From Spirosoma panaciterrae DSM 21099 (GTDB lineage Bacteria; Bacteroidota; Bacteroidia; Cytophagales; Spirosomataceae), in the NCBI RefSeq assembly GCF_000374025.1, contig NZ_KB893228.1, positions 186,001-250,000 of the forward strand: 64,000 nt of DNA, given 5' to 3'. Below the pieces are notes generated by a model that searched no databases, was not told the origin of the DNA, and was given only the letters and a program-made list of their open reading frames with translations. This document shows positions 1 through 60,567 of this stretch, piece after piece. A program made the translations under genes and the position numbers. Position 1 is the stretch's first letter. The number at the start of each line of letters is the position of its first letter.

Positions 1-209
1 CTGGCAAACTGGTACGCGGGCTGCCCGATACCTTGTGGGTAAAAATTCCCCGAAAACGGATTTCGGACAACTACGATGAAGAGGTTCCGCTGAATCAACT
101 TCGTCATCCACTCCTGCATACCAGTGCCGATCGTGTGGCCGTTAGCTTTGAGGTCGGCGAACTGCTATCACCACAATTAAAACTTAATGGCGAAAAAGTG
201 AAAAAGTGA
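1..209 (+). CDS. C-terminal end of a probable YbbR/CdaR-like protein (5' end outside window)
   Basis: An open frame enters from the left edge (first full codon at base 3) and stops with TGA at 207-209. It encodes about 68 residues, including the stretch VRGLPDTLWVKIPRK and the charged end GEKVKK. A YbbR-like protein directly upstream of coaE is a common Cytophagales order, and the mixed beta-strand-like composition fits, but the fragment is too short to prove the family. The last codons are made of a GAAAAAGT-type repeat that forms the left arm of the hairpin before coaE, so the terminal residues may be repeat-derived rather than conserved. Confidence 0.5.
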   Translation, partial: GKLVRGLPDTLWVKIPRKRISDNYDEEVPLNQLRHPLLHTSADRVAVSFEVGELLSPQLKLNGEKVKK

Positions 210-261
210 AACTGGATACGCCAGCCTTCTGCTCGTTCGATTTTTCGCTCTTTCGCTCTTT
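189..261. repeat. Repeat-armed hairpin between the upstream gene and coaE
   Basis: The left arm (about 189-212) is a purine-rich tandem of GAAAAAGT words. The right arm (about 235-261) is its pyrimidine-rich counterpart built from TTTCGCTC words, and it ends at the coaE start codon. Pairing is imperfect. The upstream gene's TGA stop (207-209) lies inside the left arm. This is one of about ten hairpins of this type in the window. It could act as a terminator or an RNA processing site. Confidence 0.6.
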
Positions 262-6145: not shown

Positions 6146-7303
6146 ATGCCTTTTTACCATACCCTCGGCCAGATACCTCCCAAACGGCACACGCAGTTTA
6201 CGAAGCCGAATGGGCAAGGCTTTTATTATGAGCAATTGTTCGGAACGATCGGTTTTGAAGGCATGTCGTCCCTGCTCTATGAGGTGCATCGTCCAACCAT
6301 GGTGCGGGAAGTGCTGGACAGCGTTGACGTAACCCCAAAACTGGCCGTCGAAAAAAATATGCTCTCCCGAAAGTTGATTGGCTTCAACCTCAAACCAGCC
6401 GATGATTTTCTGGAAAGCCGAATTCCGCTGCTGGTCAACAACGATCTGATTTTTGGTTTGGCGGCTCCCCGTCAATCACTTACCAGCTACTTCTACAAAA
6501 ATGCCGATTCCGACGAACTCCTGTTTGTTCATAAGGGCTCTGGCCGCTTGCGGACTTTACTGGGAACCGTACCGTTTCAGTATGGCGACTATCTGGTTAT
6601 TCCACGGGGTATGATTTACCAGATCGAGTTCGATACGGATGCGAACAGGTTGTTGTATGTCGAGTCGCATTCGCCGATCTATACACCCAAACGATATCGG
6701 AATCATTTTGGTCAGTTGCTCGAACACGCTCCCTTCTGTGAACGGGACATTGTGCGGCCATGCGATCTTGAAACGTACGATGAAACGGGTGACTTTCTGA
6801 TCAAGATCAAAAAGCAGGGAGCCATTCATTCGCTGGTGTACGCGTCGCACCCCTTCGATGTAGTTGGCTGGGATGGCTACAATTACCCTTATGGTCTTTC
6901 CATTTTCAACTTCGAGCCCATTACGGGCCGTGTTCACCAACCCCCTCCGGTGCATCAGACCTTCCAGACCGATTCGTTTGTCGTCTGTTCGTTTGTTCCC
7001 CGGCTGTTCGATTATCATCCGCTGGCAATCCCGGCTCCCTACAACCACTCGAACATCGACTCCGATGAGGTCATATATTATGTCGATGGTGATTTTATGA
7101 GTCGAAACGACATCGCTCAGGGGCATATCACCTTACATCCCGGCGGTATTCCGCATGGTCCGGCTCCGGGTGCTATGGAACGAAGCATTGGCAAGAAAGA
7201 AACGCAGGAATATGCCGTCATGGTCGATACGTTCCGTCCTCTCATGCTGACCGAACAGGCGCTCCTGATCGACGATGGAAAGTATTATAAATCCTGGCTG
7301 TAG
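6146..7303 (+). CDS. hmgA: Homogentisate 1,2-dioxygenase
   Basis: This enzyme opens the ring of homogentisate with O2 to give 4-maleylacetoacetate, using Fe(II) in the cytoplasm. The 385-residue product has the compact length seen in Bacteroidota. It carries the HVHQ-like segment GRVHQPPPVHQTFQ, then PYNHSNIDSDEVIYYV (metal-binding His and Glu) and HPGGIPHGP (third His) near the C-terminus. It is the first gene of the phenylalanine/tyrosine cluster that continues through hppD, phhA, marR and fahA. Its TAG stop (7301-7303) lies inside the first half of a palindromic repeat pair (7300-7409). Confidence 0.93.
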   Translation: MPFYHTLGQIPPKRHTQFTKPNGQGFYYEQLFGTIGFEGMSSLLYEVHRPTMVREVLDSVDVTPKLAVEKNMLSRKLIGFNLKPADDFLESRIPLLVNNDLIFGLAAPRQSLTSYFYKNADSDELLFVHKGSGRLRTLLGTVPFQYGDYLVIPRGMIYQIEFDTDANRLLYVESHSPIYTPKRYRNHFGQLLEHAPFCERDIVRPCDLETYDETGDFLIKIKKQGAIHSLVYASHPFDVVGWDGYNYPYGLSIFNFEPITGRVHQPPPVHQTFQTDSFVVCSFVPRLFDYHPLAIPAPYNHSNIDSDEVIYYVDGDFMSRNDIAQGHITLHPGGIPHGPAPGAMERSIGKKETQEYAVMVDTFRPLMLTEQALLIDDGKYYKSWL

Positions 7304-7409
7304 AGACGCGACCCTTCGCGTCTCCTGACCGGATGGCTCTTACGCCAAAGGGTTTACTAACGTTAACCAATTGCTGGCGCATATGAGACGCGAAGGGTCG
7401 CGTCTCTAC
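7300..7409. repeat. Inverted pair of 25-bp palindromic (REP/BIME-like) units
   Basis: A 25-bp unit at 7300-7324 recurs as its exact reverse complement at 7385-7409. Each unit is itself a hairpin, GAGACGCGA-CCCT-TCGCGTCTC (9-bp stem, 4-nt loop). The 60 bp between them show no gene. The pair fills the gap between hmgA and hppD and includes the hmgA stop codon. Its form is that of REP/BIME elements mobilised by RAYT transposases, but no RAYT gene is in the window. Confidence 0.85.
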
Positions 7410-7430
7410 ACACAACATCAACAAACCCGT

Positions 7431-8570: not shown

Positions 8571-8579
8571 AAATTATCA

Positions 8580-8658
8580 ATGAGTGAATGATAGAATGAT
8601 TGAATAGAAAAGCTTACGCTAGCCATTCAATCATTCAATCATTCTATCATTCACTCAT
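8580..8658. repeat. Repeat-armed hairpin with a perfect 26-bp stem between hppD and phhA
   Basis: Bases 8580-8605 pair perfectly with 8633-8658 across a 27-nt loop. Both arms are imperfect tandems of GAATGATT/GAGTGAATG words, and the right arm is followed by a further ATTCAATCATT unit. The element sits between two genes of one pathway, so it could attenuate the distal part of the operon or protect the upstream mRNA. Confidence 0.85.
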
Positions 8659-8671
8659 TCAATCATTGACC

Positions 8672-9428: not shown

Positions 9429-9490
9429 GGTCATTGAGGTCATATTCGCGTTTATAAGCAACAAATGACTTGCCCTGACTACCTAATGAC
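9429..9490. repeat. Weak repeat-armed hairpin between phhA and the MarR gene
   Basis: GGTCATTGAGGTCAT (9429-9443) is countered by ATGACT (9465) and AATGAC (9485), so the arms are built from GGTCATTGA-type words in inverted orientation. Pairing is interrupted. It looks like a degenerate member of the same hairpin class. Confidence 0.4.
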
Positions 9491-9949: not shown

Positions 9950-10022
9950 GGAAAAAGGGATGGACATAGGAAATGAAGGTTACTTGTTTCCCTTTCGTCT
10001 CTATCTTCCTTCGTCCCTTTCC
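9950..10022. repeat. Repeat-armed hairpin between the MarR gene and fahA
   Basis: A purine-rich arm (GGAAAAAGGGATGG...GAAATGAAGG, about 9950-9979) faces a pyrimidine-rich arm (CCTTTCGTCTC...CGTCCCTTTCC, about 9991-10022). Pairing is imperfect. It begins directly after the MarR stop codon (9947-9949). Confidence 0.5.
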
Positions 10023-16005: not shown

Positions 16006-16111
16006 GAACCGGGATTTTTGTGATTAAACTGACCGACTTTGATGATGCTTTCGAAGAAAGCTTAGCTAACCAAATCAAAGTCAGTCACAAAAATCATAAA
16101 AATCCCGGTTC
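16006..16111. repeat. Long imperfect inverted repeat between manA and rhaM
   Basis: The right arm (16071-16111) ends AAAATCATAAAAATCCCGGTTC. The left arm (16006 to about 16044) starts GAACCGGGATTTTTGTGATT and shares most positions with the reverse complement. The centre GCTTTCGAAGAAAGC is itself a hairpin, so the whole ~106 bp can fold into one rod. It fills the manA-rhaM gap and begins 2 nt upstream of the rhaM start codon. The GGTTC end and AATCATAAAAATC core look like a dispersed Bacteroidota repeat. Confidence 0.75.
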
Positions 16112-29097: not shown

Positions 29098-29161
29098 TAT
29101 AGGGCTGCCGGGTTAGGCTGTTGATCTATTAATAACAACAGCCTAACCCGACAGCCCTATA
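29098..29161 (-). terminator. Long hairpin after the Kbp-like gene
   Basis: Bases 29098-29123 pair with 29136-29161 as a 26-bp stem with one G-U position and a 12-nt loop. It lies 24 nt past the stop codon of the BON-LysM gene. The stem is GC-rich in the middle (GGGCTGCCGGGTTAGG) but has no T run. It also sits upstream of the DUF937 gene. Confidence 0.85.
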
Positions 29162-31197: not shown

Positions 31198-31995
31198 ATG
31201 AGATTTTACCCGCTTTCATTCGCTCTGTTACTCAGCCTGACCACATCGGTAATAATGGCGCAGACTTCTGGCCGTAGTATCGAACTCGGAATCAAAGGAG
31301 GAGGAACGTTTACGCATGGTTTTACCACGGTTCCGGGTCAAACGATAGGTAGCGTTAAAGTACCTGACCTGGAAAATAAAAACAATGGTATTGGGTATGG
31401 GTATTCCGGAGGTCTATGGGCTCGAAAGAATTTTGAGACGTTCTTCATTCAGGCCGAAGTAACTTACAACCGTTTCGTATTGAAACAGAAAGCAGCCATT
31501 ACCGTCGATGTAAATGCCAATGCAGCCCTTGCCAATGCCTTGCCGGTAAGTGTACAGCCAGGCTTATTGAATGCCTCATTAAATGTAGTTTCTGAATCTA
31601 TTCTGGAAGCCGTGGATGTACCCGTTCTGATCGGAAAACGCTGGATGAATGGAAAGCTTCGCGGGTATGCCGGACCTAACTTCATTTTCGTCCAGAAAGC
31701 AGAAGCCAATCGAACCACTAGTGGGGCCATTAACGCCAATTCGACCATCAATTTCCCGCAAACTGATATTCCAGCGACAACAGGCACAACCAACCTGCTC
31801 AATAAATATGAGGCCCAGAACCTGGAAGTAAAAGATTTTACGTACGCTCTGGAGTTGGGTGTAGGCTATACACCATTGCCGTTTCTGGACGTCGATGTTC
31901 GGTATGCTGCCCCCGTTGGAGGGGTTTATAAAGACAGCAGCATTAAGGGATTTCTGGGAATAGCTACCGTTTCGCTCGGCTTTAGGGTATTCTGA
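31198..31995 (+). CDS. Outer-membrane beta-barrel (PorT-like) protein
   Basis: The 265-residue protein has a signal peptide ending SVIMAQ (about residue 21), then alternating strands such as SIELGIKGGGTFTHGF and TYALELGVGYTPLPFLDVDVRYA, and it ends in an aromatic F (LGFRVF). This is the 8-strand barrel pattern annotated as PorT-family or outer-membrane beta-barrel protein. It lies 4 nt after the SGNH lipoprotein gene and may work with it at the outer membrane. Its TGA stop (31993-31995) is the first triplet of a hairpin arm. Confidence 0.85.
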   Translation: MRFYPLSFALLLSLTTSVIMAQTSGRSIELGIKGGGTFTHGFTTVPGQTIGSVKVPDLENKNNGIGYGYSGGLWARKNFETFFIQAEVTYNRFVLKQKAAITVDVNANAALANALPVSVQPGLLNASLNVVSESILEAVDVPVLIGKRWMNGKLRGYAGPNFIFVQKAEANRTTSGAINANSTINFPQTDIPATTGTTNLLNKYEAQNLEVKDFTYALELGVGYTPLPFLDVDVRYAAPVGGVYKDSSIKGFLGIATVSLGFRVF

Positions 31996-32068
31996 TAGCG
32001 GGTAGCCATTGGTCGATAGTTTGTATTGATTTCCAGATACTGCTATCGACTGATGCCTATCGATCATT
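31993..32068. repeat. Repeat-armed hairpin enclosing both stop codons of two convergent genes
   Basis: The left arm 31993-32019 (words such as TGATAGCGGG and GGTCGATAG) faces 32043-32066 (CTATCGACTGATG, CCTATCGATCA). The barrel gene stop TGA (31993-31995) and the reverse-strand stop of the next gene (32064-32066) are the outer ends of the two arms. Pairing is imperfect. Confidence 0.6.
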
Positions 32069-33458: not shown

Positions 33459-34421
33459 ATGGAGCTACCGTTCGAGGCTGCCTTGTCTCCCTGCTCAGCA
33501 GAAATAACCTCTAAGAATGATTTTGTGAAAACATTGCTTGTGATAGCCGGACCAACAGCCGTTGGCAAAACGGCCCTGTGTGTTCGATTGGCAAAACGAT
33601 TACAGACGGATGTCGTATCGGCCGATTCTCGCCAGCTATATCGTGAACTGAACATTGGTACGGCGAAACCGACATCGGACGAAATGGATGGTGTTCGGCA
33701 TCATTTTATCAACTCTCATTCCATTACGGATGCCGTAAACGCTGGCCGATATGAACGGGAATGCCTGGCTGTATTAGCCGACTTGTTTCAACAAAAAGAT
33801 GTCGTGATTTTATCGGGCGGGACTGGTTTATATATCAACGCTGTTTGTTTTGGCCTCGACGATATGCCCGTAGTAGATCCAACACTGCGTGAACGTTTGC
33901 TGAGCCGTCTGCAAAGAGAAGGGTTATCCACACTTCAGCAGGAGTTACGTCTGTTAGATCCGGTTTATGCCGAAACGGCCGACTTGCAGAACCCGATTCG
34001 GGTAACCAGAGCCCTTGAAGTATGTTTGTCGACTGGCCAACCGTATTCGTCGTTCCGGCGCAGGCAGGTAGCCGAGCGTCCATTTCAGCCAGTTATGGTT
34101 GCTCTTGAACGCCCACGCGACGAATTATATGCCCGTATTGACGCTCGTATGGAGGCCATGCTTGATGCTGGCCTGGTTGATGAAGTTCGTACGCTTACAC
34201 CCTACCGCGATTTACCGGCCTTGCAAACGGTAGGCTATCAGGAAGTATTTCCTTATCTGGAAGGAACGTACGATTACGATGAAATGGTGCGTCTGCTCAA
34301 ACGCAACTCCCGACGTTATGCCAAGCGGCAGCTAACCTGGTTTCGAAACCAGGGAAACTATATCTGGGTAGCCCCCGATGATGAAGAAAAAGTGATTAGG
34401 TGTATGATGTATGATGTATGA
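33459..34421 (+). CDS. miaA: tRNA dimethylallyltransferase
   Basis: This enzyme transfers a dimethylallyl group to N6 of A37 in tRNAs that read UNN codons. The 320-residue product carries the P-loop AGPTAVGKT, the SADSRQLYREL segment with the catalytic Asp, GTAKP, GGTGLY and QTVGYQEV. The ATG at 33459 is chosen; a TTG at 33447 would add four residues. The C-terminal residues MMYDV are encoded by the TGTATGA repeat that forms the arm of the following hairpin, and the TGA stop lies inside it. The C-terminus may therefore have been reshaped by the repeat. Confidence 0.95.
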   Translation: MELPFEAALSPCSAEITSKNDFVKTLLVIAGPTAVGKTALCVRLAKRLQTDVVSADSRQLYRELNIGTAKPTSDEMDGVRHHFINSHSITDAVNAGRYERECLAVLADLFQQKDVVILSGGTGLYINAVCFGLDDMPVVDPTLRERLLSRLQREGLSTLQQELRLLDPVYAETADLQNPIRVTRALEVCLSTGQPYSSFRRRQVAERPFQPVMVALERPRDELYARIDARMEAMLDAGLVDEVRTLTPYRDLPALQTVGYQEVFPYLEGTYDYDEMVRLLKRNSRRYAKRQLTWFRNQGNYIWVAPDDEEKVIRCMMYDV

Positions 34422-34468
34422 TATAGGGTGTGTACACATCATACATCATACATCATACATCATACATC
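34401..34468. repeat. Repeat-armed hairpin of 7-nt units, overlapping the miaA stop
   Basis: The left arm (34401-34422) is three copies of TGTATGA and the right arm (about 34437-34468) is more than four copies of the inverse TCATACA. The stop codon of miaA (34419-34421) lies in the left arm. Both arms are near-perfect tandems, the cleanest example of the repeat-word architecture. The rhodanese gene converges from the other side, so it may also terminate transcription. Confidence 0.85.
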
Positions 34469-34480
34469 TAATTGTATCAT

Positions 34481-34780: not shown

Positions 34781-34841
34781 CGATGGTCAGCAGTCGGTAG
34801 CCACCCGTACGTTATCCCTAACTGACAACGAATGACCATCG
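34781..34841. repeat. Inverted repeat between the T9SS protein and rhodanese genes
   Basis: CGATGGTCA (34781-34789) pairs with TGACCATCG (34833-34841). The right side contains further words of the same kind (ACTGACAACGAATGACCATCGACCAATGAC). It looks like a short member of the repeat-armed hairpin class, and would lie 3' of the T9SS gene on the minus strand. Confidence 0.6.
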
Positions 34842-42719: not shown

Positions 42720-45149
42720 ATGGAAATTTCCTATAAATGGTTACAAGATTTTATTGAATTACCGGAATTACCGGAAGAAGTTGGCAAAATGCTAACCGCA
42801 ACGGGGCTTGAAGTTGAAGGGGTTGAGAAAATTGAAGCCATACCGGGTGGACTGGAAGGGATAGTTATTGGTGAAGTGCTGACCTGTACTAAACACCCTG
42901 ACGCCGATAAGCTAAGCCTGACCACAGTTGATGTAGGTTCTGGCCAACCATTACCTATTGTTTGCGGAGCCCCTAATGTGGCGGCAGGGCAAAAAGTAGT
43001 GGTCGCGCTTGTTGGGGCAACGTTACATCCTGCCTCAGGCGAAGCGTTTCAGATCAAAAAAGCTAAAATTCGGGGCGCTGCTTCTGAAGGAATGATTTGT
43101 GCTGAAGATGAGATTGGCCTGGGTACTTCGCACGCAGGGATCATGGTGCTGACGACTGACCTTCCCAATGGCACACCGGCTGCCCGATACTTCAACCTGG
43201 AAGCCGATTACCAGATTGCTATCGGACTGACCCCCAATCGGATTGATGCCGCTTCGCACTATGGCACGGCCCGGGATTTAAAAGCTGCGTTGAATCGCCC
43301 TCTGCGCCTACCATCGGTCGACGCATTCACCGTAAACAATACGAATCTAACCCTAGATGTACAGGTCGACGATACAGCGGCCTGTCCCCGTTACACCGGA
43401 CTGACCATCAGTGGCCTTACCGTAGCCGAGTCGCCGGAATGGCTTAAACAACGCTTGATTGCCATCGGCCAGAAACCGATCAACAATGTAGTCGACATTA
43501 CAAACTTTGTATTACACGACCTTGGGCAGCCACTCCACGCTTTCGATGCAGACAGGATAGCCGGTAACCAGGTCATCGTCAAAACGCTGCCAGAAGGGAC
43601 ACCCTTTGTTACACTGGATGGGGTTGAGCGAAAACTCAGTAGTACAGACCTGATGATCTGCGACGCTGAAAAACCCATGTGTATTGCCGGGGTGTTTGGA
43701 GGGCAGTATTCGGGGGTTTCGATGCAAACAACCAGCATCTTTCTGGAATCGGCCTATTTCTCGGCTACATCGGTTCGGAAAACGGCGCAGTATCATGGAC
43801 TCAAAACGGACGCATCGTTCCGATTCGAGCGAGGTACGGACCCCAATATGCCCGTCTTTGCCTTAAAACGGGCCGCCTTACTGATTCAGGAAATTGCAGG
43901 TGGCACCATTAGTTCAGACATTACGGATATCTACCCGAATCCAATCAAGCCATTTCGGGTAGCAGTACGCTATAGGAACATTGATCGGCTGATCGGGATA
44001 AAAATCGATCATACCGAAATTCACCGGATTCTGGAAGCCCTGGACATTCAGGCGGACGACCAGACGGACGAAGGCTTCACCGCTGTTGTACCGCCCTACC
44101 GGGTCGATGTAACGCGGGAGGCTGATGTGGTTGAGGAAATTCTGCGTATTTATGGCCTGGACAATGTCCCCTTGTCGGTACATCTGTCGGCCGACTCCCT
44201 GTCTGAGTTCCCCAAAGTAGATCCCGATGGATGGCAGAACCGGGTTGGACAACTGATGGCAGCTAACGGTTTTTACGAAATCCTGACCTTATCACTGACT
44301 CGCCCTGCCTATCATGATGCCATTCGGTCGGTCTTACCGGGCGAAGATGTCACACTGCTCAATCCACTCAGTGATGAACTTTCGGTAATGCGCCAAACGC
44401 TTCTTTTTTCGTCGCTGGAAACCTTGGCTTATAATCTGAACCGGCGGCAGAAAGATCTGAAAACCTTTGAGTTCGGCAAAGTTTATCATAAAGTAAAACT
44501 TGAAGATGGAAGCACTAAATATGTAGAGCGTATGCGATTAAGTCTGGCGATTACGGGAAACCAATCGTCAGAAAGCTGGCTTCAAAAAGGGCAATCTGTG
44601 GTTTACCACGATTTGGCTACAGCTACTCAGCGTATTCTTAATCTGTTCCGTATTAAATCGTTCGATACGCAACCTGCCGACTCAGCCATCTTCCAGTATG
44701 GGTTGACGTATATGGTCAATAAAAAACCAATTGTCAGCCTGGGCCTAGTTCAGCCGAGACTCACGAAGCTGATCGACCTGAAGCAGCCTGTTTTTTACGC
44801 TGACTTCGACTGGGCGGCCCTCCTTAAATTAGCCACAGGCAAAGTTCGTTACGAAGAAGTATCCCGTTTCCCTGAAGTTCGTCGGGATCTGTCATTAGTA
44901 ATTGACAAAGGAGTTACATTCGAACAAATCAGTCGGCTGGCTCGGCAGACCGAGCGGAAACTGTTACGGGCTATCAACGTTTTCGATGTGTACGAAGGTG
45001 ATAATCTGGGAGCCGGTAAGAAAGCGTATTCGGTCAATTTTATGCTACAGGACTCAACCCAGACCCTGACCGATGCAGCCATCGATAAAACTATGCAGCG
45101 GCTTATGAACGCTTTTGAGCAGGAACTAGGCGCTGTTATTCGTAAATAA
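42720..45149 (+). CDS. pheT: Phenylalanyl-tRNA synthetase beta subunit
   Basis: The beta subunit of the class II enzyme that charges tRNA-Phe, with editing of Tyr-tRNA. The 809-residue product starts MEISYKWLQDFIELPELPEE (42720), has the EMAP-like tRNA-binding domain (about 40-150, EVLTCTKHPDADKLSLTTVD), B3/B4 editing (IAIGLTPNRIDAASH; EDARRED-like GTPFVTLDGVERKL) and B5 (RIDRLIGIKIDHTEIHRILEAL). A core-like catalytic fold and a C-terminal ferredoxin-like anticodon-binding domain (VSRFPEVRRDLSLVID) follow. pheS is not adjacent. The downstream hairpin separates it from the coiled-coil gene. The call is firm. Confidence 0.96.
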   Translation: MEISYKWLQDFIELPELPEEVGKMLTATGLEVEGVEKIEAIPGGLEGIVIGEVLTCTKHPDADKLSLTTVDVGSGQPLPIVCGAPNVAAGQKVVVALVGATLHPASGEAFQIKKAKIRGAASEGMICAEDEIGLGTSHAGIMVLTTDLPNGTPAARYFNLEADYQIAIGLTPNRIDAASHYGTARDLKAALNRPLRLPSVDAFTVNNTNLTLDVQVDDTAACPRYTGLTISGLTVAESPEWLKQRLIAIGQKPINNVVDITNFVLHDLGQPLHAFDADRIAGNQVIVKTLPEGTPFVTLDGVERKLSSTDLMICDAEKPMCIAGVFGGQYSGVSMQTTSIFLESAYFSATSVRKTAQYHGLKTDASFRFERGTDPNMPVFALKRAALLIQEIAGGTISSDITDIYPNPIKPFRVAVRYRNIDRLIGIKIDHTEIHRILEALDIQADDQTDEGFTAVVPPYRVDVTREADVVEEILRIYGLDNVPLSVHLSADSLSEFPKVDPDGWQNRVGQLMAANGFYEILTLSLTRPAYHDAIRSVLPGEDVTLLNPLSDELSVMRQTLLFSSLETLAYNLNRRQKDLKTFEFGKVYHKVKLEDGSTKYVERMRLSLAITGNQSSESWLQKGQSVVYHDLATATQRILNLFRIKSFDTQPADSAIFQYGLTYMVNKKPIVSLGLVQPRLTKLIDLKQPVFYADFDWAALLKLATGKVRYEEVSRFPEVRRDLSLVIDKGVTFEQISRLARQTERKLLRAINVFDVYEGDNLGAGKKAYSVNFMLQDSTQTLTDAAIDKTMQRLMNAFEQELGAVIRK

Positions 45150-45151
45150 TA

Positions 45152-45226
45152 AGTGAAAGAGCGAAAGAGTGAAAGAGCGATTTAATGCGCTACCAATTCA
45201 CTCTTTCACTCTTTCGCTCTTTCACT
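45152..45226. repeat. Repeat-armed hairpin with a perfect 26-bp stem after pheT
   Basis: Bases 45152-45177 are the exact complement of 45201-45226, across a 23-nt loop. The arms are tandems of GAAAGAGC/GAAAGAGT words. The stem length equals that of the hairpin at 8580-8658, although the words differ. It lies 2 nt past the pheT stop and 10 nt before the GTG start of the next gene. Confidence 0.88.
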
Positions 45227-45236
45227 CTTTAAAACC

Positions 45237-45575
45237 GTGGTTAGCGAGCATCAAATTATTGCATTGGTGGAGCGATTTGAGCATAAGCTTAAGTTGCTCA
45301 CGAATCTGTATACCGATGCTAAAAACCAGATTGAGCAATTAGAACGAGAGAAAGAGGCCCTGCAGGAAAGCCTTAAAGCCGAGCAGGATCAGGTGAAGGA
45401 ATTACGAAAAAAATCAACTAAGGCGGAAAATAATACAGCTATTTCAAAAGATAGTGGTATAATTGTAAAAGACAACCTGTTAGGTACAGGTACGAATGCT
45501 GAATTAAAACAACAACTCGACGAGTATATCCAGGAATTAGAACGGTGTATAGCTCATTTGAGTAGTTTGTCATAA
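45237..45575 (+). CDS. Coiled-coil protein encoded next to zapA
   Basis: The 112-residue protein starts with GTG at 45237, since no ATG fits. It is a predicted coiled coil: FEHKLKLLTNLYTDAKNQIEQLEREKEALQESLKAEQDQVKELRKK, followed by a less ordered middle and a second helix ELKQQLDEYIQELERCIAHL. In Cytophagales a small coiled-coil gene commonly precedes zapA, so a role with FtsZ-ring regulators (ZapB-like) is plausible but inferred. Only about 46 nt separate it from the zapA ATG, so they form an operon. Confidence 0.75.
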   Translation: MVSEHQIIALVERFEHKLKLLTNLYTDAKNQIEQLEREKEALQESLKAEQDQVKELRKKSTKAENNTAISKDSGIIVKDNLLGTGTNAELKQQLDEYIQELERCIAHLSSLS

Positions 45576-49804: not shown

Positions 49805-51832
49805 ATGAAAAATCTGTACTTCCTGCTTTTCTTTCCACTGCTCACCTACGCCCAGGTTGACGACGGCGGCCAGTTCTGCCGGTCTGGTAAATTGCATTAT
49901 TTTGGTCAATTAGCTAACAATCCGAAAGCGCGAATGGCCTATCCAGGCGATGCCTCGATCGACGTAACCTATTATGGCCTTGATCTGCGACTGAGCACGT
50001 CACCAGCCAGCATGACGGCCGCGACGACCATAACCCTCAAAAGCACAGTTTCCGGCCTGACCAGTTTTTTTCTGGACCTCAACTCTGCAACTACATCCAG
50101 TACTGGCCTTAAAGTCGATTCGGTCAAGGCAGGAACTCAGAAACTCACATTCCAGCACACTCAAAATAAACTGACCATTACCACGCCACAACCACTAGCG
50201 AATGGTCAGCCGCTGTCGTTCACTGTATTTTATCAGGGCGTTCCAAACAATACATCCAACGGGCCCGGTTATGTAAACTTCTCCTTTGACAAACATGGGC
50301 CCGCGGCCGATCCGGTGATCTGGACGTTAAGCGAGCCTTATGGTGCATCAGACTGGTTTCCGTGTCGCGATACCCCCGCCGATAAAGCCGATTCATCGTC
50401 AGTACGCATTACGGCACCTGCTCAATTGGTATCGGTCTCGAATGGTAAGTTGATGAGTACGACCACAAACAAGGATGGCACAAAAACGTATTTATGGAAA
50501 AATAGTTATCCGATAGCCCAATACCTGATTTCGATTGCGGTCTCGAATTATACGCAGTACGATACCCCATTTACCTACGGGAGTCAAACTATGCCCGTCA
50601 CGCACTATATTTTTCCCGAAACATTTGCAATAACTGGCATTCAAAACAACCTCGCACTAACCCCTACTATGTTGCAGTTGTTCAGTAATCGTTTTGGAGC
50701 TTACCCTTTCCTAAACGAAAAATATGGTCATGCTCAATACGGCGACAACAGTGGGATGGAGCATCAGACTATAAGCTCAATGGGGCCATCAACCATAAGT
50801 TCATCCTATCTGGGTGCTTTCACACCCACTACGATTGCTCATGAGCTAGCCCATCAATGGTTTGGTGATAAAATTACTTGCCGCGACTGGCAGAATATCT
50901 GGTTAAATGAAGGGTTTGCCTCCTATGCAGAAGCCATTTACACCGAATCGATCAATGGACAATCGGGGTATCAATCGTCCATCAACACCTTCATGAACGG
51001 CGCTCGTAATGCGCAGGGAAGCGTTTATGCACAAAGCATTACGAATGTTGACTATGTTTTCGATTATAATCGCAGCTACGCTAAAGGCGCTACTGTATTG
51101 CATATGCTCCGGGGAGTGATTGGCGATAGCACCTTCTTTCGAACTCTGAGAACCTACGCAGCCAGCCCGGTAGTGGCTTATAAGACGGCCGTAACGGAGG
51201 ATTTCCAGGCGATTGCCCAGCAGGTTTCCGAAAAAAATCTGAATTATTTTTTCAGCCAGTGGATATACGGCGCGGGTTATCCGGCTTATAAAGCCACGAT
51301 CACCACAGGAGGCACGACAGCTACGGTTCGGCTTACGCAAAGTAATGCAATGACCACTGCACCGGGTTCGTTTACGATGCCCATTCAGATGAAAGTACAG
51401 TCGGCAGCAGGCGATACAACCGTTACGGTTTTCAACGATCAGGCCGATCAGACGTTTACACTGCCCGCCCGAGGGAAGGTTACCAATGTCGTAATTGACC
51501 CCAACAACTGGATACTCAAAACGCTCACGACGACTACCACAACCACAACGGTAGTCACAGGGATTACTGAACCCAATGACATCGGTCTGCGTATCTATCC
51601 GAATCCAACAACCGAGACTATTACTGTCGATTTTACCCAGTCAACGATTGGCCCGGTCAGGCTGTCATTAACAAATCTGCTTGGGCAACAAGTCCAGACC
51701 ATCCATGAACCCAGTCTATCTTCGGGCAACTATAGTCGAAACTTCAGTCTACGCGGTCTGGCTAGCGGGCGCTATACAGTTACTGTCGAAACATCAGCGG
51801 GGCTTCAGAGCCGAGTGGTGCTGGTCAATTGA
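49805..51832 (+). CDS. M1-family metallo-aminopeptidase with a T9SS sorting domain
   Basis: The 675-residue secreted peptidase starts best at 49805 (MKNLYFLLFFPLLTYAQ signal); the frame from GTG at 49778 adds 9 residues. The M1 core has the exopeptidase motif GMEH (YGDNSGMEHQ) and zinc-binding HELAHQWFGDKITCRDWQNIW...NEGFASYAE, that is HExxH-18-E. A Thr-rich linker (LTTTTTTTTVV) leads to a C-terminal type A sorting domain (LRIYPNPTTETITVDF...LASGRYTVTVETSAG), so it is exported by T9SS and should degrade peptides on the cell surface. The stop codon lies in the left arm of the hairpin that follows. Confidence 0.92.
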   Translation: MKNLYFLLFFPLLTYAQVDDGGQFCRSGKLHYFGQLANNPKARMAYPGDASIDVTYYGLDLRLSTSPASMTAATTITLKSTVSGLTSFFLDLNSATTSSTGLKVDSVKAGTQKLTFQHTQNKLTITTPQPLANGQPLSFTVFYQGVPNNTSNGPGYVNFSFDKHGPAADPVIWTLSEPYGASDWFPCRDTPADKADSSSVRITAPAQLVSVSNGKLMSTTTNKDGTKTYLWKNSYPIAQYLISIAVSNYTQYDTPFTYGSQTMPVTHYIFPETFAITGIQNNLALTPTMLQLFSNRFGAYPFLNEKYGHAQYGDNSGMEHQTISSMGPSTISSSYLGAFTPTTIAHELAHQWFGDKITCRDWQNIWLNEGFASYAEAIYTESINGQSGYQSSINTFMNGARNAQGSVYAQSITNVDYVFDYNRSYAKGATVLHMLRGVIGDSTFFRTLRTYAASPVVAYKTAVTEDFQAIAQQVSEKNLNYFFSQWIYGAGYPAYKATITTGGTTATVRLTQSNAMTTAPGSFTMPIQMKVQSAAGDTTVTVFNDQADQTFTLPARGKVTNVVIDPNNWILKTLTTTTTTTTVVTGITEPNDIGLRIYPNPTTETITVDFTQSTIGPVRLSLTNLLGQQVQTIHEPSLSSGNYSRNFSLRGLASGRYTVTVETSAGLQSRVVLVN

Positions 51833-51883
51833 GCGAATGAGTGATTGAGTGGCCGTACATAAGCTCTTCACTCATTCGCTCAA
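51829..51883. repeat. Repeat-armed hairpin between the M1 peptidase and glgE
   Basis: TTGAGCGAATGAGTGA (51829-51844) pairs perfectly with 51868-51883, and the neighbouring words (GTGATTGAGTGG, CTCAATCACACAATC) add weaker pairing. The TGA stop of the peptidase (51830-51832) lies in the left arm, and glgE converges from the right, so it may terminate both. Confidence 0.75.
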
Positions 51884-51891
51884 TCACACAA

Positions 51892-59257: not shown

Positions 59258-59326
59258 AATAAAGAGTGAAAGAGTGAAAAGGTGAAAAGTGGTTGGGTTC
59301 GCATTTCGCTCTATCACTCGTTCGCT
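59258..59326. repeat. Degenerate repeat-armed hairpin between the MFS and CMD genes
   Basis: A purine arm (AAAGAGTGAAAGAGTGAAAAGGTG, about 59260-59284, in GAAAGAGT words) faces a pyrimidine arm (GCATTTCGCTC...TATCACTCGTTCGCTCC, about 59300-59326). The MFS stop (59314-59316) lies in the right arm. Pairing is partial. Confidence 0.5.
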
Positions 59327-60567
59327 CCGGTCCGGCGTTCCGGTTCGCTCTTTAGGTAAATTGCGCTTAGGGCAATCAGAAAAGCGGCTGAAAAAATGAC
59401 CAGTGCATTTCCGATTCCTCCTAAAATCGTCGTCAGTGCTCCTACAAACAACACGGCCGTAGCCGTAAACAGACGGCCTATATTAAAACAGAACCCCGTA
59501 GCTGTAGCCCGAATCGATGCATCAAAAAGCGTTGGCACATAACTCGATAACGAACCCTGGCTGATACCCAGAAATAACGACAGCAACCCCACTTCACTGT
59601 AGATAATGGGCGAAAACGTCCGATTGCTGAGAAAGAGTATGGCACAGGCCAGAATACAGCCTACAAATGTGAATAACAGGGTGTAACGCGGCCCAATCCG
59701 GCGAACCAGAAATCCTGACGCAATGCCACCGACAATGCCGCCCATACCCAATAACATCATCATGATACCCCGTTCGGTTTGGCCGCTCTGGCCCGCAGGC
59801 AGAAGCGATTGAACCCAGGTAGGTAACCAGGAAAAAATCCCCCAGAGACCGATCAATACCGCCCCAAAAATGAGCGACCCACTGATCACATTCGGTTTGT
59901 TTTCAGGACTGAACAAATTAGGCTTTTGACCTTGGCGGCTGTTTTTACCAAGCTGCCAGCTAGCCGACTCCGGCAACAGCAGACCAATCAGGATGGCTAC
60001 CGCAATCGGAATCAGACCGACGTTGAACGCCAATCGCCAATTACTAAAACCACTTGCCAGACCACCCGTAGCTACAATACCTACCGGAAACGCCGTGGCC
60101 AATACACCCAGCACTACAGGGCGCGACGGCCCCGACCATACTTCGGACAGATAGACCGTCGATACCAGTAAAATACCACCTACACCCGCGCCTGTCAACG
60201 CCCGAAGGCCAATAAGCACATACACATCCGGCACAAAGGCTGTTGCCAGCATCGCTCCACCGCATAAACCCGTTGCCAGTACCAATGCCCGAACCCGACC
60301 GATCTGATCGGCCAAAGGGCCAAACAGAAACCCACCGATCATCCAGCCGTACAAAAATGCCGCACTGACCCAGGCTCCGGTGTTGGCAATTTCATCAGCC
60401 GAGGCTGTCTCACCGAGTAACTGCGGAAGAGCAACAGGTAAATATGTAGCCATCAATGTACTGGCCGTGCCTCCAAATAAATAGGCAACCATGCAAAGGC
60501 CAAAACTGCCCCAGGGCAAGGCTATACGCGGCTGCTCATCGATTGCAAGTAATTTAGTTTCCATCAC
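59314..60567 (-). CDS. MFS transporter
   Basis: The 417-residue protein has 12 predicted membrane helices and the sugar/aromatic-acid type MFS signatures: GWMIGGFLFGPLADQIGRVRAL (loop 2-3, with the GxxxDxxGRR-like motif) and LLPESASW after helix 6. The second half includes GGIASGFLVRRIGPRYTLL. It resembles the aromatic-acid:H+ symporter/SP-type group, so the substrate could be an aromatic or other organic acid, but this is weak. It is transcribed 17 nt after the TonB-dependent receptor, forming a TBDR-MFS two-membrane import pair. Confidence 0.9.
   Translation of the reverse strand: MMETKLLAIDEQPRIALPWGSFGLCMVAYLFGGTASTLMATYLPVALPQLLGETASADEIANTGAWVSAAFLYGWMIGGFLFGPLADQIGRVRALVLATGLCGGAMLATAFVPDVYVLIGLRALTGAGVGGILLVSTVYLSEVWSGPSRPVVLGVLATAFPVGIVATGGLASGFSNWRLAFNVGLIPIAVAILIGLLLPESASWQLGKNSRQGQKPNLFSPENKPNVISGSLIFGAVLIGLWGIFSWLPTWVQSLLPAGQSGQTERGIMMMLLGMGGIVGGIASGFLVRRIGPRYTLLFTFVGCILACAILFLSNRTFSPIIYSEVGLLSLFLGISQGSLSSYVPTLFDASIRATATGFCFNIGRLFTATAVLFVGALTTILGGIGNALVIFSAAFLIALSAIYLKSEPERRTGANE

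What the first reader, a model, noticed from the sequence alone, without database searches (positions are those of the whole stretch)
45152..45226. A class of intergenic hairpins with arms made of locus-specific tandem words
Seen: at 189-261, 8580-8658, 9429-9490, 9950-10022, 31993-32068, 34401-34468, 34781-34841, 45152-45226, 51829-51883 and 59258-59326 the gap holds a hairpin whose arms are imperfect tandems of a 7-9 nt word. The words differ (GAAAGAGT, GAATGATT, TGTATGA, GAGTGAATG, GGTCGATAG) but the architecture is shared: repeat arm, 10-30 nt loop, inverted repeat arm. Two independent examples have exactly 26 perfect pairs. Because the words differ, they do not look like copies of one mobile element. 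Inference: they may arise by slippage plus template switching and be kept as terminators or mRNA-stability elements.
Basis: partly seen in the sequence, partly recalled or inferred. Interest (0 to 1): 0.8.

Follow-up and report, generated by a model that had tools for sequence, protein, structure and literature searches.

The report
Self-rewriting word hairpins after bacterial genes
A genus of bacteria carries very many DNA hairpins just after its genes, some with arms built from short repeated words; relatives often keep a hairpin at the same spot but rewrite its letters, probably by a copying slip between the two arms.

Summary
Real, but needs correcting. Of the ten listed sites, four (8580, 34401, 45152, 51829) are long near-perfect hairpins with tandem 7-8 nt words, two (189, 59258) are imperfect versions, 31993 is marginal, and 9429, 9950 and 34781 do not hold. 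In 864 kb of this Spirosoma genome there are 138 long inverted repeats, against 0-1 in shuffles. Words are not locus-specific: GAAAGAGTGAAAGAG (up to one mismatch) occurs 361 times genome-wide, control 1. Word arms have strict polarity, G>C in the 5' arm in 96 of 96, and different word families share an apical core, GCTGACGC. Hairpins start a few nt after stop codons. At orthologous gaps both species often keep a hairpin while its arms are rewritten. Loop inversions and mirrored changes in both arms are known marks of template switching. The terminator reading is weakened for word hairpins: no excess between convergent genes. Best reading: hairpins kept and rewritten by template switching at mRNA 3' ends and operon junctions; function unproven. 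How words spread between loci is open.

The parts
45152..45226 (.). Hairpin after pheT: 26 perfect pairs, arms 45152-45177 and 45201-45226 of GAAAGAGY words, loop 23 nt; 2 nt separate it from the stop at 45149 and 10 nt from the next start at 45237
   Evidence: words GAAAGAG[TC] genome-wide
8579..8659 (.). Hairpin after the HPPD-like gene (stop 8570): 27 perfect pairs, GAATGATT/GAGTGAAT words, loop 27 nt
   Evidence: an inverted repeat in the same gap in 27 of 29 usable genus loci
34395..34472 (.). Hairpin of GTATGAT words (28-nt arms, loop 22) that overlaps the 3' end of miaA; the stop at 34421 lies in the 5' arm; convergent gap
51828..51884 (.). Hairpin of GAGCGAAT words (17 pairs, loop 23) between the convergent M1 peptidase and GlgE-like genes
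189..261 (.). Imperfect word hairpin (GAAAAAGT/GAAAGAG type) ending at the start codon at 262
   Evidence: z -2.0, periodicity p 0.002
59258..59326 (.). Imperfect word hairpin (AAAGAGTG words) between two minus-strand genes, overlapping the 3' end of the one at 59314-60564
   Evidence: z -4.1, periodicity p 0.002
31993..32068 (.). Hairpin in a convergent gap, weak periodicity; marginal member
   Evidence: z -3.9, p 0.01
16006..16111 (.). Long hairpin of the dispersed GAACCGGGATTT family (non-word relative in the same niche)
29098..29161 (.). Long non-word hairpin whose central 10-nt block differs in mirror fashion in relative G001
   Evidence: own 215023
7299..7410 (.). Long hairpin, arms TGTAGAGACGCG..., 26 perfect pairs, loop 60 with core-like GCTGGCGC

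Best explanation
These are members of an abundant class of long intergenic hairpins of Spirosoma and some near genera (132 with arms of 18 nt or more in 1.09 Mb, so roughly 1,000 per genome by extrapolation). They sit directly after stop codons. Shown: they are far beyond chance, positions often persist while sequences are rewritten, arms change together at several sites, loops invert, and 7-nt units are gained or lost in both arms at once. Inferred mechanism: a replicating polymerase stalls in the hairpin and switches template to the other arm. This copies one arm onto the other, keeps pairing, and sometimes inverts the loop. Slippage on the tandem words changes the number of word units, which is then mirrored. 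Inferred role: the transcribed hairpin acts at mRNA 3' ends and operon junctions, most likely protecting the upstream message and separating neighbouring cistrons. In convergent gaps the long hairpins, chiefly the non-word ones, are the commonest candidate for a bidirectional terminator.
For: Excess: 138 against 0-1. Placement: gaps with a long hairpin are 74 of 385 co-directional, 23 of 82 convergent and 4 of 118 divergent (own, p 1e-6); G001 p 0.019, G021 p 0.0014 in the same direction; stop-to-hairpin median 4, 7 and 3 nt. Convergent gaps with a hairpin leave a median of 12 nt outside it, against 64 nt for hairpin-free gaps. Turnover: own versus G021, 30 gaps with hairpins in both, median arm identity 0.63, pairing 0.96; own versus G001, 17 gaps, 0.63 and 1.0; non-orthologous arms give 0.44. 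HPPD gap: 27 of 29 usable loci hold an inverted repeat of score 11 or more (17 of score 16 or more), median pairwise arm identity 0.50. Loop inversions: 2 of 25 scored G001/G021 loops against 4 of 3000 random loop pairs, plus a third at a gap where one arm is mostly lost. Mirrored 7-nt differences at 447956 and 71552. Changed tracts matching the reverse complement of sequence in the other species: 14 of 2177 tests against 0 as reverse and 0 as complement. Precedent: arm homogenisation and spacer inversion by template switching (PMC8604942, abstract and one section); creation and repair of RNA stems (PMC8794818, outline and abstract).
Against: Template switching inside one locus does not explain why the same words stand at many loci, nor family swaps: 23 of 53 own-versus-relative pairs (18 of 38 distinct own gaps) have arm identity below 0.6, and most of these involve non-word arms (own arm periodic in 6 of 23, partner in 4). 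Between the closest pair, G001 and G021, gaps with a word arm are mostly unchanged (12 pairs, median identity 0.97). No loop inversion in the 42 loops scored in the more distant comparisons, and across the genus loci only the pheT pair already counted. High pairing is partly built in, because my caller selects well-paired arms. The 14 footprints lie in at most 9 gaps, some are ambiguous because words repeat, and some are one event counted twice. Function is untested; depletion in divergent gaps is also expected if promoters do not tolerate insertions. Presence is not universal: 28 both, 20 one only of 169 G001/G021 gaps scored; pheT gap 16 of 30.
Confidence: 0.5

Rival explanations
1. They are intrinsic, mostly bidirectional transcription terminators that need no U-tract: the pyrimidine-rich 3' arm gives a weak RNA-DNA hybrid while the long stem forms (recalled principle).
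For: After-gene placement and depletion in divergent gaps. Long hairpins share a convergent gap with a canonical-type terminator in only 1 of 64 cases. Non-word long hairpins are enriched in convergent gaps, 56 in 211 against 105 in 948 co-directional.
Against: Word hairpins are not enriched in convergent gaps: 13 in 211 against 69 in 948. In co-directional gaps they end a median of 15 nt before the next start (n=69), leaving little room for a promoter. T-run of 6 or more in 10 nt on 8.5% of flanks (compact hairpins 13.9%). My canonical-type terminators are rare anyway (19 of 173 convergent gaps) and 91 of 109 convergent gaps without a long hairpin have neither, so the exclusivity is weak (p 0.27, 0.22, 0.03).
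Confidence: 0.25
2. They are small mobile hairpin elements (REP- or MITE-like), spread by a transposase and tolerated after genes.
For: Words and arm stretches recur at many loci; shared apical core GCTGACGC at 1.61 per kb of apices against 0.042 per kb of other intergenic DNA; one dispersed family (GAACCGGGATTT) aligns between loci with ends near the hairpin ends; family swaps at one gap between close relatives.
Against: Neither of the two Y1 transposase loci of the genome is flanked within the 1.5 kb fetched by word hairpins or the core, though one has a non-word hairpin; other transposase families were not searched. Loops, word and non-word together, are mostly unrelated between loci (random-pair control). 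Where only one of two species has the hairpin, the gap length differs by 40 nt or less in 37 of 58 cases and is longer with the hairpin in 18, which does not look like clean insertion in most.
Confidence: 0.3
3. Pure mutational by-product: slippage and snap-back synthesis at G-rich tracts, kept wherever selection does not remove it.
For: Strict polarity of word arms (G>C 96 of 96) and constant arm order within families (word families 21 to 0, non-word families 17 to 0) would follow if tandem G/A-rich tracts are what stalls the polymerase; mirrored changes.
Against: The HPPD gap keeps a hairpin in 27 of 29 loci despite near-complete arm turnover; tight stop-codon adjacency; near absence in Dyadobacter and Runella (2 in 318 kb, 1 in 143 kb); shared words between loci.
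Confidence: 0.25

Closest known systems
Template-switch homogenised inverted repeats (quasipalindrome correction; PMC8604942, PMC8794818)
   Same: Arms made alike by copying one onto the other, loop inversion, multi-base compensatory change.
   Different: Here many loci per genome, loops of 12 nt and more inverted, some arms made of tandem words from a shared vocabulary, placed after stop codons.
REP, BIME and REPIN palindromes with RAYT transposases (PMC3733652, passages)
   Same: Many intergenic palindromes, proposed mRNA 3'-end roles.
   Different: Published REPs have 5-13 bp stems with an end tag GTAG or CGTC and family-conserved sequence; here arms reach 17-50 nt, differ at orthologous loci, and the two Y1 transposase loci are not flanked by word hairpins.
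Cyanobacterial short tandem heptamer repeats (STRR, recalled) and TAACTGA repeats (PMC4679880, passages)
   Same: Intergenic tandem 7-nt words, scattered phylogeny that includes some Bacteroidetes.
   Different: The TAACTGA repeats are almost all direct arrays, mostly near start codons in the main genome studied; here words are paired with an inverted array and sit after stops.
Rho-independent terminators
   Same: Hairpin after a gene; non-word long hairpins favour convergent gaps.
   Different: Long loops, word arms not enriched between convergent genes, strict G/C polarity that compact hairpins lack (36 against 37).

Membership tests
Template-switch-maintained inverted repeat | Hairpin in both species although the same arms differ between them | tested here: met
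   arm identity 0.63 with pairing 0.96-1.0 (own versus G021 and G001); pairing partly built in by the caller; unrelated arms 0.44
Template-switch-maintained inverted repeat | Spacer (loop) inversion between relatives | tested here: met
   2 of 25 against 4 of 3000 random; third case; 0 of 42 in the more distant comparisons
Template-switch-maintained inverted repeat | Changed tract equals the reverse complement of sequence present in the other species | tested here: met
   14 of 2177 against 0 and 0 controls; at most 9 gaps, some ambiguous because words repeat
Rho-independent terminator | U-tract directly after the stem | tested here: inconclusive
   T-run on 8.5% of long-hairpin flanks, but only 13.9% for compact hairpins too; within the last 10 nt of the 3' arm 14.0% and 22.2%
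Rho-independent terminator | Excess between convergent genes | tested here: not met
   word hairpins 13 in 211 convergent against 69 in 948 co-directional gaps; met for non-word long hairpins (56 against 105)
Rho-independent terminator | Transcripts end at the hairpin | not testable with these tools
   no RNA data
REP/RAYT element | RAYT gene flanked by the repeats | tested here: not met
   two Y1_Tnp loci, no word hairpin or core in the flanks held; whether either is a RAYT was not tested
REP/RAYT element | Unpaired GTAG or CGTC tag at one end of a conserved short palindrome | tested here: inconclusive
   the apical core GCTGACGC holds CGTC in reverse complement, but at the apex and in a minority of hairpins; ends not tested for tags
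Known RNA family (Rfam 15) | Covariance-model match at gathering score | tested here: not met
   0 matches in the window

The most novel reading that the evidence does not exclude
A transposase-free, self-rewriting hairpin system: hairpins at gene ends draw on a genome-wide vocabulary of 7-9 nt words, and a locus can be overwritten by another locus's words through between-locus template switching seeded at the shared apex GCTGACGC, with polarity (G-rich arm first) enforced. This would be a mode of concerted evolution in which position and structure are inherited but sequence is swapped.
Probability: 0.22. Interest if true: 0.82.

Novelty: new variant of a known kind. Interest (0 to 1): 0.6.

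Why it matters
Template switching as a maker and keeper of hairpins is described for yeast genes and RNA genes (PMC8604942, PMC8794818). Here one genome offers roughly a thousand natural examples (extrapolated), with relatives close enough to read single events. It makes testable whether long stems are kept by selection or by mutation, and warns that mirrored (compensatory) changes alone do not prove RNA function. The shared vocabulary, polarity and apical core are unexplained.

Tried and rejected
Locus-specific words: rejected. One single repeat family: rejected; several word families and several non-word families share the niche. Chance: rejected. Assembly artefact: unlikely, since the class is dense in G001, a single-contig genome. 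RAYT-driven REP: not supported. I first took the low number of Y1 transposase loci as evidence against; that argument is dropped, since one RAYT can serve many REPs (recalled), and the flank test replaces it. Known RNA family: none in Rfam. Plasmid-borne spread: the hairpin at 7290-7420 has no match, and that at 45145-45235 one partial match, on a Spirosoma plasmid, among 72,556 plasmid records (BLAST's low-complexity filter was on, so word repeats may be missed). Conserved loop sequence: loops are mostly unrelated between loci, but an apical core is enriched. A U-less terminator reading was weakened. Literature: no title on such hairpins in Spirosoma among the 7 of 7 papers listed (Spirosoma, repeat, palindrom) or the 20 listed of 2,497; nor a description of this class in the listings, seen as titles and abstract starts only. 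The library lacks most subscription journals. My gene calls come from a home-made hexamer ORF finder: stops are firm, starts less so. Own, G001 and G021 samples cover orthologous regions and are not independent; gaps over 430 nt (with pads) were skipped and over 400 nt.

Full report
WHAT WAS CHECKED. The window is G000:C57:186001-250000 of an 8.13 Mb genome in 72 contigs. Its genus is Spirosoma by inference: genus relatives coincide in contig position with named Spirosoma records, for example G021 with NZ_MKUD01000001.1 (Spirosoma sp. 48-14) and G003 with S. arboris. Of the ten listed sites, four are strong word hairpins, two are imperfect ones, one is marginal and three are not supported. A window scan finds 16 inverted repeats of score 11 or more against 1-3 in five order-2 shuffles. 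In 864 kb (C1:1-400k, C2:1-400k and the window) there are 138 of score 14 or more against 0-1.

THE CLASS. In 1.09 Mb of own DNA (about 13% of the genome, not a random sample), 132 hairpins have arms of 18 nt or more and loops of 4 or more. Of these, 38 have arms periodic at lag 7-9 with p<0.01 (1.3 expected); G001 24 of 93, G021 35 of 94; the strongest single lag is 8. Word families include GAAAGAGY, GAATGATT/GAGTGAAT, TGTATGA, AGGAGTT, GGGAGGAAA and AGGGCAT. Non-word families in the same places include GAACCGGGATTT, GAACACAGATT and TTTTGTCATNCNGA.

WORDS ARE SHARED, NOT LOCUS-SPECIFIC. GAAAGAGTGAAAGAG with up to one mismatch occurs 187+174 times in the own genome against 1+0 for the reversed control. 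It is found in 36 of 36 genus genomes, though some have counts near the control, for example G024 with one hit. In a family sample of 150 genomes 113 have a match, but a clear excess over control appears only in this genus and in some genomes of genera g3, g8, g16, g18, g26 and g29. Of 41 periodic arms, 32 share an exact stretch of 16 nt or more with another place in the 1.09 Mb, against 1 of 41 for reversed arms; of 91 non-periodic arms 23 do, against 0.

POLARITY AND APEX. In 96 periodic arms from the own, G001 and G021 samples the 5' arm is A 42%, C 4%, G 35%, T 19%, with G>C in 96 and G<C in 0. Compact hairpins show no such bias (36 against 37); non-periodic long arms show a weaker one (158 against 30). 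Within a family the arm order is constant: where arrays have a neighbour within 130 nt, the 5'-arm word comes before its reverse complement 21 times for the seven word families and 17 times for the four non-word arm families scanned, the opposite order 0 times; same-strand neighbours 5, all in the GGGAGGAAA family (the words were taken from 5' arms, so this shows consistency, not direction). In named relatives, over all long hairpins, G>C holds in 29 of 32 (other Spirosoma), 8 of 8 (Fibrisoma), 16 of 19 (Fibrella and Fibrivirga), but only 4 of 8 in Larkinella. The octamer GCTGACGC lies at the apex of 27 of 386 hairpins against 0.84 expected from the genome rate. It occurs at 1.61 per kb of apices (21 hits) against 0.042 per kb of intergenic DNA outside hairpins (13 hits), in hairpins of different words and genera. 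It is absent from most hairpins, so it is a shared trait, not a defining one.

PLACEMENT. In gaps of 60-400 nt, long hairpins occur in 74 of 385 co-directional, 23 of 82 convergent and 4 of 118 divergent gaps (own); G001: 50 of 237, 21 of 40, 7 of 62; G021: 46 of 218, 20 of 51, 5 of 67. In co-directional gaps the median distance from stop to hairpin is 4, 7 and 3 nt, and from hairpin to start 21, 25.5 and 21 nt. For word hairpins alone these are 3 and 15 nt, n=69. Hairpins nearly fill convergent gaps: a median of 12 nt remains outside (n=69), against 64 nt for hairpin-free gaps (n=203). The terminator test splits the class. In gaps of 40-400 nt (211 convergent, 948 co-directional, 253 divergent) there are 26, 25 and 2 compact hairpins; 56, 105 and 8 non-word long ones; 13, 69 and 8 word hairpins. 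Word hairpins therefore do not behave like terminators, while non-word long hairpins partly do. Canonical-type terminators by my rule are rare (19 of 173 convergent gaps) and 91 of 173 convergent gaps show neither kind, so much of termination here is unexplained by either.

TURNOVER AT ORTHOLOGOUS GAPS. Orthologous gaps were compared between own, G001 and G021 (median protein identity 89-96% in the four comparisons). G001/G021: 199 gaps, 30 skipped, 28 hairpin in both, 20 in one, 121 in neither. Own/G001: 122, 20, 17, 14, 71. Own/G021: 197, 33, 30, 16, 118. Own C1/G001: 69, 15, 6, 7, 41. Median arm identity is 0.85, 0.63, 0.63 and 0.54, while median pairing inside hairpins is 0.95, 1.0, 0.96 and 0.98; the caller favours good pairing. 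Non-orthologous arms give 0.46, 0.44, 0.44 and 0.36. For pairs with a word arm on either side, arm identity is 0.97 (12 pairs, G001/G021), 0.66 (7, own/G001) and 0.66 (12, own/G021). Of 53 own-versus-relative pairs, 23 have arm identity below 0.6, which is 18 of 38 distinct own gaps; the own arm is periodic in 6 and the partner in 4, so most swaps are among non-word hairpins. Across the genus, of the 30 loci cut per gene an inverted repeat of score 11 or more starts within 60 nt of the stop in 27 of 29 usable HPPD loci, 16 of 30 pheT loci and 22 of 29 miaA loci (score 16 or more: 17, 12, 11), with median pairwise arm identities 0.50, 0.52 and 0.47. Not everything swaps: the GTATGAT word persists at miaA in several species.

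EVENT-LEVEL EVIDENCE FOR TEMPLATE SWITCHING. (a) Loop inversion between G001 and G021 at the pheT gap and at G001 447956 (offset 5,900,000): 2 of 25 scored loops, 13 of 25 unchanged; random loop pairs give 4 of 3000 inverted; 0 of 42 in the other comparisons. A third inversion with loss of most of one arm is at 594551. Genus-wide pairs at pheT, HPPD and miaA add none (1 of 105, 0 of 351, 0 of 153; the one is the pheT pair). (b) A 7-nt unit present in both arms of one species and absent from both arms of the other at 447956 and 71552. (c) At own 215023 (window 29098-29161) a central 10-nt block differs from G001 in both arms at once, with outer and inner parts kept (read by eye). (d) 14 of 2177 changed tracts match the reverse complement of sequence in the other species, 0 match as reverse or complement; they lie in at most 9 gaps, some ambiguous. 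(e) At G001 541224 the 5' arm is the reverse complement of a 3' arm that G021 largely shares, while G021's 5' side differs (read by eye). These are published marks of template switching between arms (PMC8604942: abstract and the section on spacer inversion; PMC8794818: outline and abstract only).

DISTRIBUTION. In 80 named loci around pheT, long hairpins per 100 kb are 19.8 in Fibrella (60 kb), 17.8 in Fibrisoma (44 kb), 11.3 in Spirosoma (291 kb), 4.8 in Larkinella (104 kb), 3.5 in Emticicia (142 kb), and 0.6-0.7 in Dyadobacter (318 kb), Runella (143 kb) and Pedobacter (141 kb); two Rudanella loci and two loci of Spirosoma-labelled MAGs have none.

HOW IT MOST LIKELY WORKS. Shown: excess, placement, shared words, polarity, apical core, turnover with a hairpin kept, mirrored changes at several sites. 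Inferred: replication template switching keeps and rewrites the arms; slippage changes word number; the transcribed hairpin acts at message ends and operon junctions. Not explained: how words spread between loci, and why G-rich arms come first. Between-locus template switching would explain shared words and swaps; it was not shown.

COMPARISON WITH KNOWN KINDS. The process resembles known template-switch repair of inverted repeats, and the tests for it were met. Membership among Rho-independent terminators fails for word hairpins on the convergent-excess test and is undecided on the U-tract, although individual hairpins may still terminate. Membership among REP/RAYT elements is not supported: the two Y1 transposase loci are not flanked by word hairpins. 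The tandem-word aspect recalls cyanobacterial heptamer repeats (STRR recalled; TAACTGA paper PMC4679880, passages only). A survey of inverted repeats in 118,019 genomes (PMC13155455, passages only) has no occurrence of Spirosoma or of words beginning Bacteroid in its main text.

Noticed in passing
window 34395-34472: The miaA stop codon lies inside the hairpin arm, so the hairpin encodes the last codons; in G001, G021, G008, G006 and G022 the matched region holds an in-frame stop, so hairpin turnover may rewrite the protein's C-terminus.
   Followed up: partly
G000:C1 about 147500-240300 (L038-L043): 23 minus-strand genes of 786-848 codons, many separated by purine-rich word hairpins of the GGGAGGAAAG and AGGGCAT families; gene identity not determined.
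   Followed up: no
window 16006-16111 and several own loci: A dispersed hairpin element with GAACCGGGATTT ends of about 120 nt; alignments between loci end close to the hairpin ends, as for a mobile element.
   Followed up: partly
window 45237-45575: Small ORF between pheT and zapA with a sub-threshold Pfam match to an effector family (20.1 against cut-off 23.8 bits); its place beside zapA suggests an ordinary housekeeping protein, not an effector.
   Followed up: no
L231: A record labelled Flavobacterium sp. SUN052 has a pheT 75% identical to Spirosoma and 3 long hairpins in 22 kb; it looks like a misnamed Spirosoma-group genome.
   Followed up: no
L213:9805-9981: An inverted repeat of score 68 with 74-nt arms in G088, far longer than the class average.
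   Followed up: no
L296:2885-2970: A non-word hairpin with a GTAACACGGGTGGGAACCC arm lies about 1 kb downstream of a Y1 transposase match; similar arms occur at the gap before the HPPD gene in G001 and G021.
   Followed up: no
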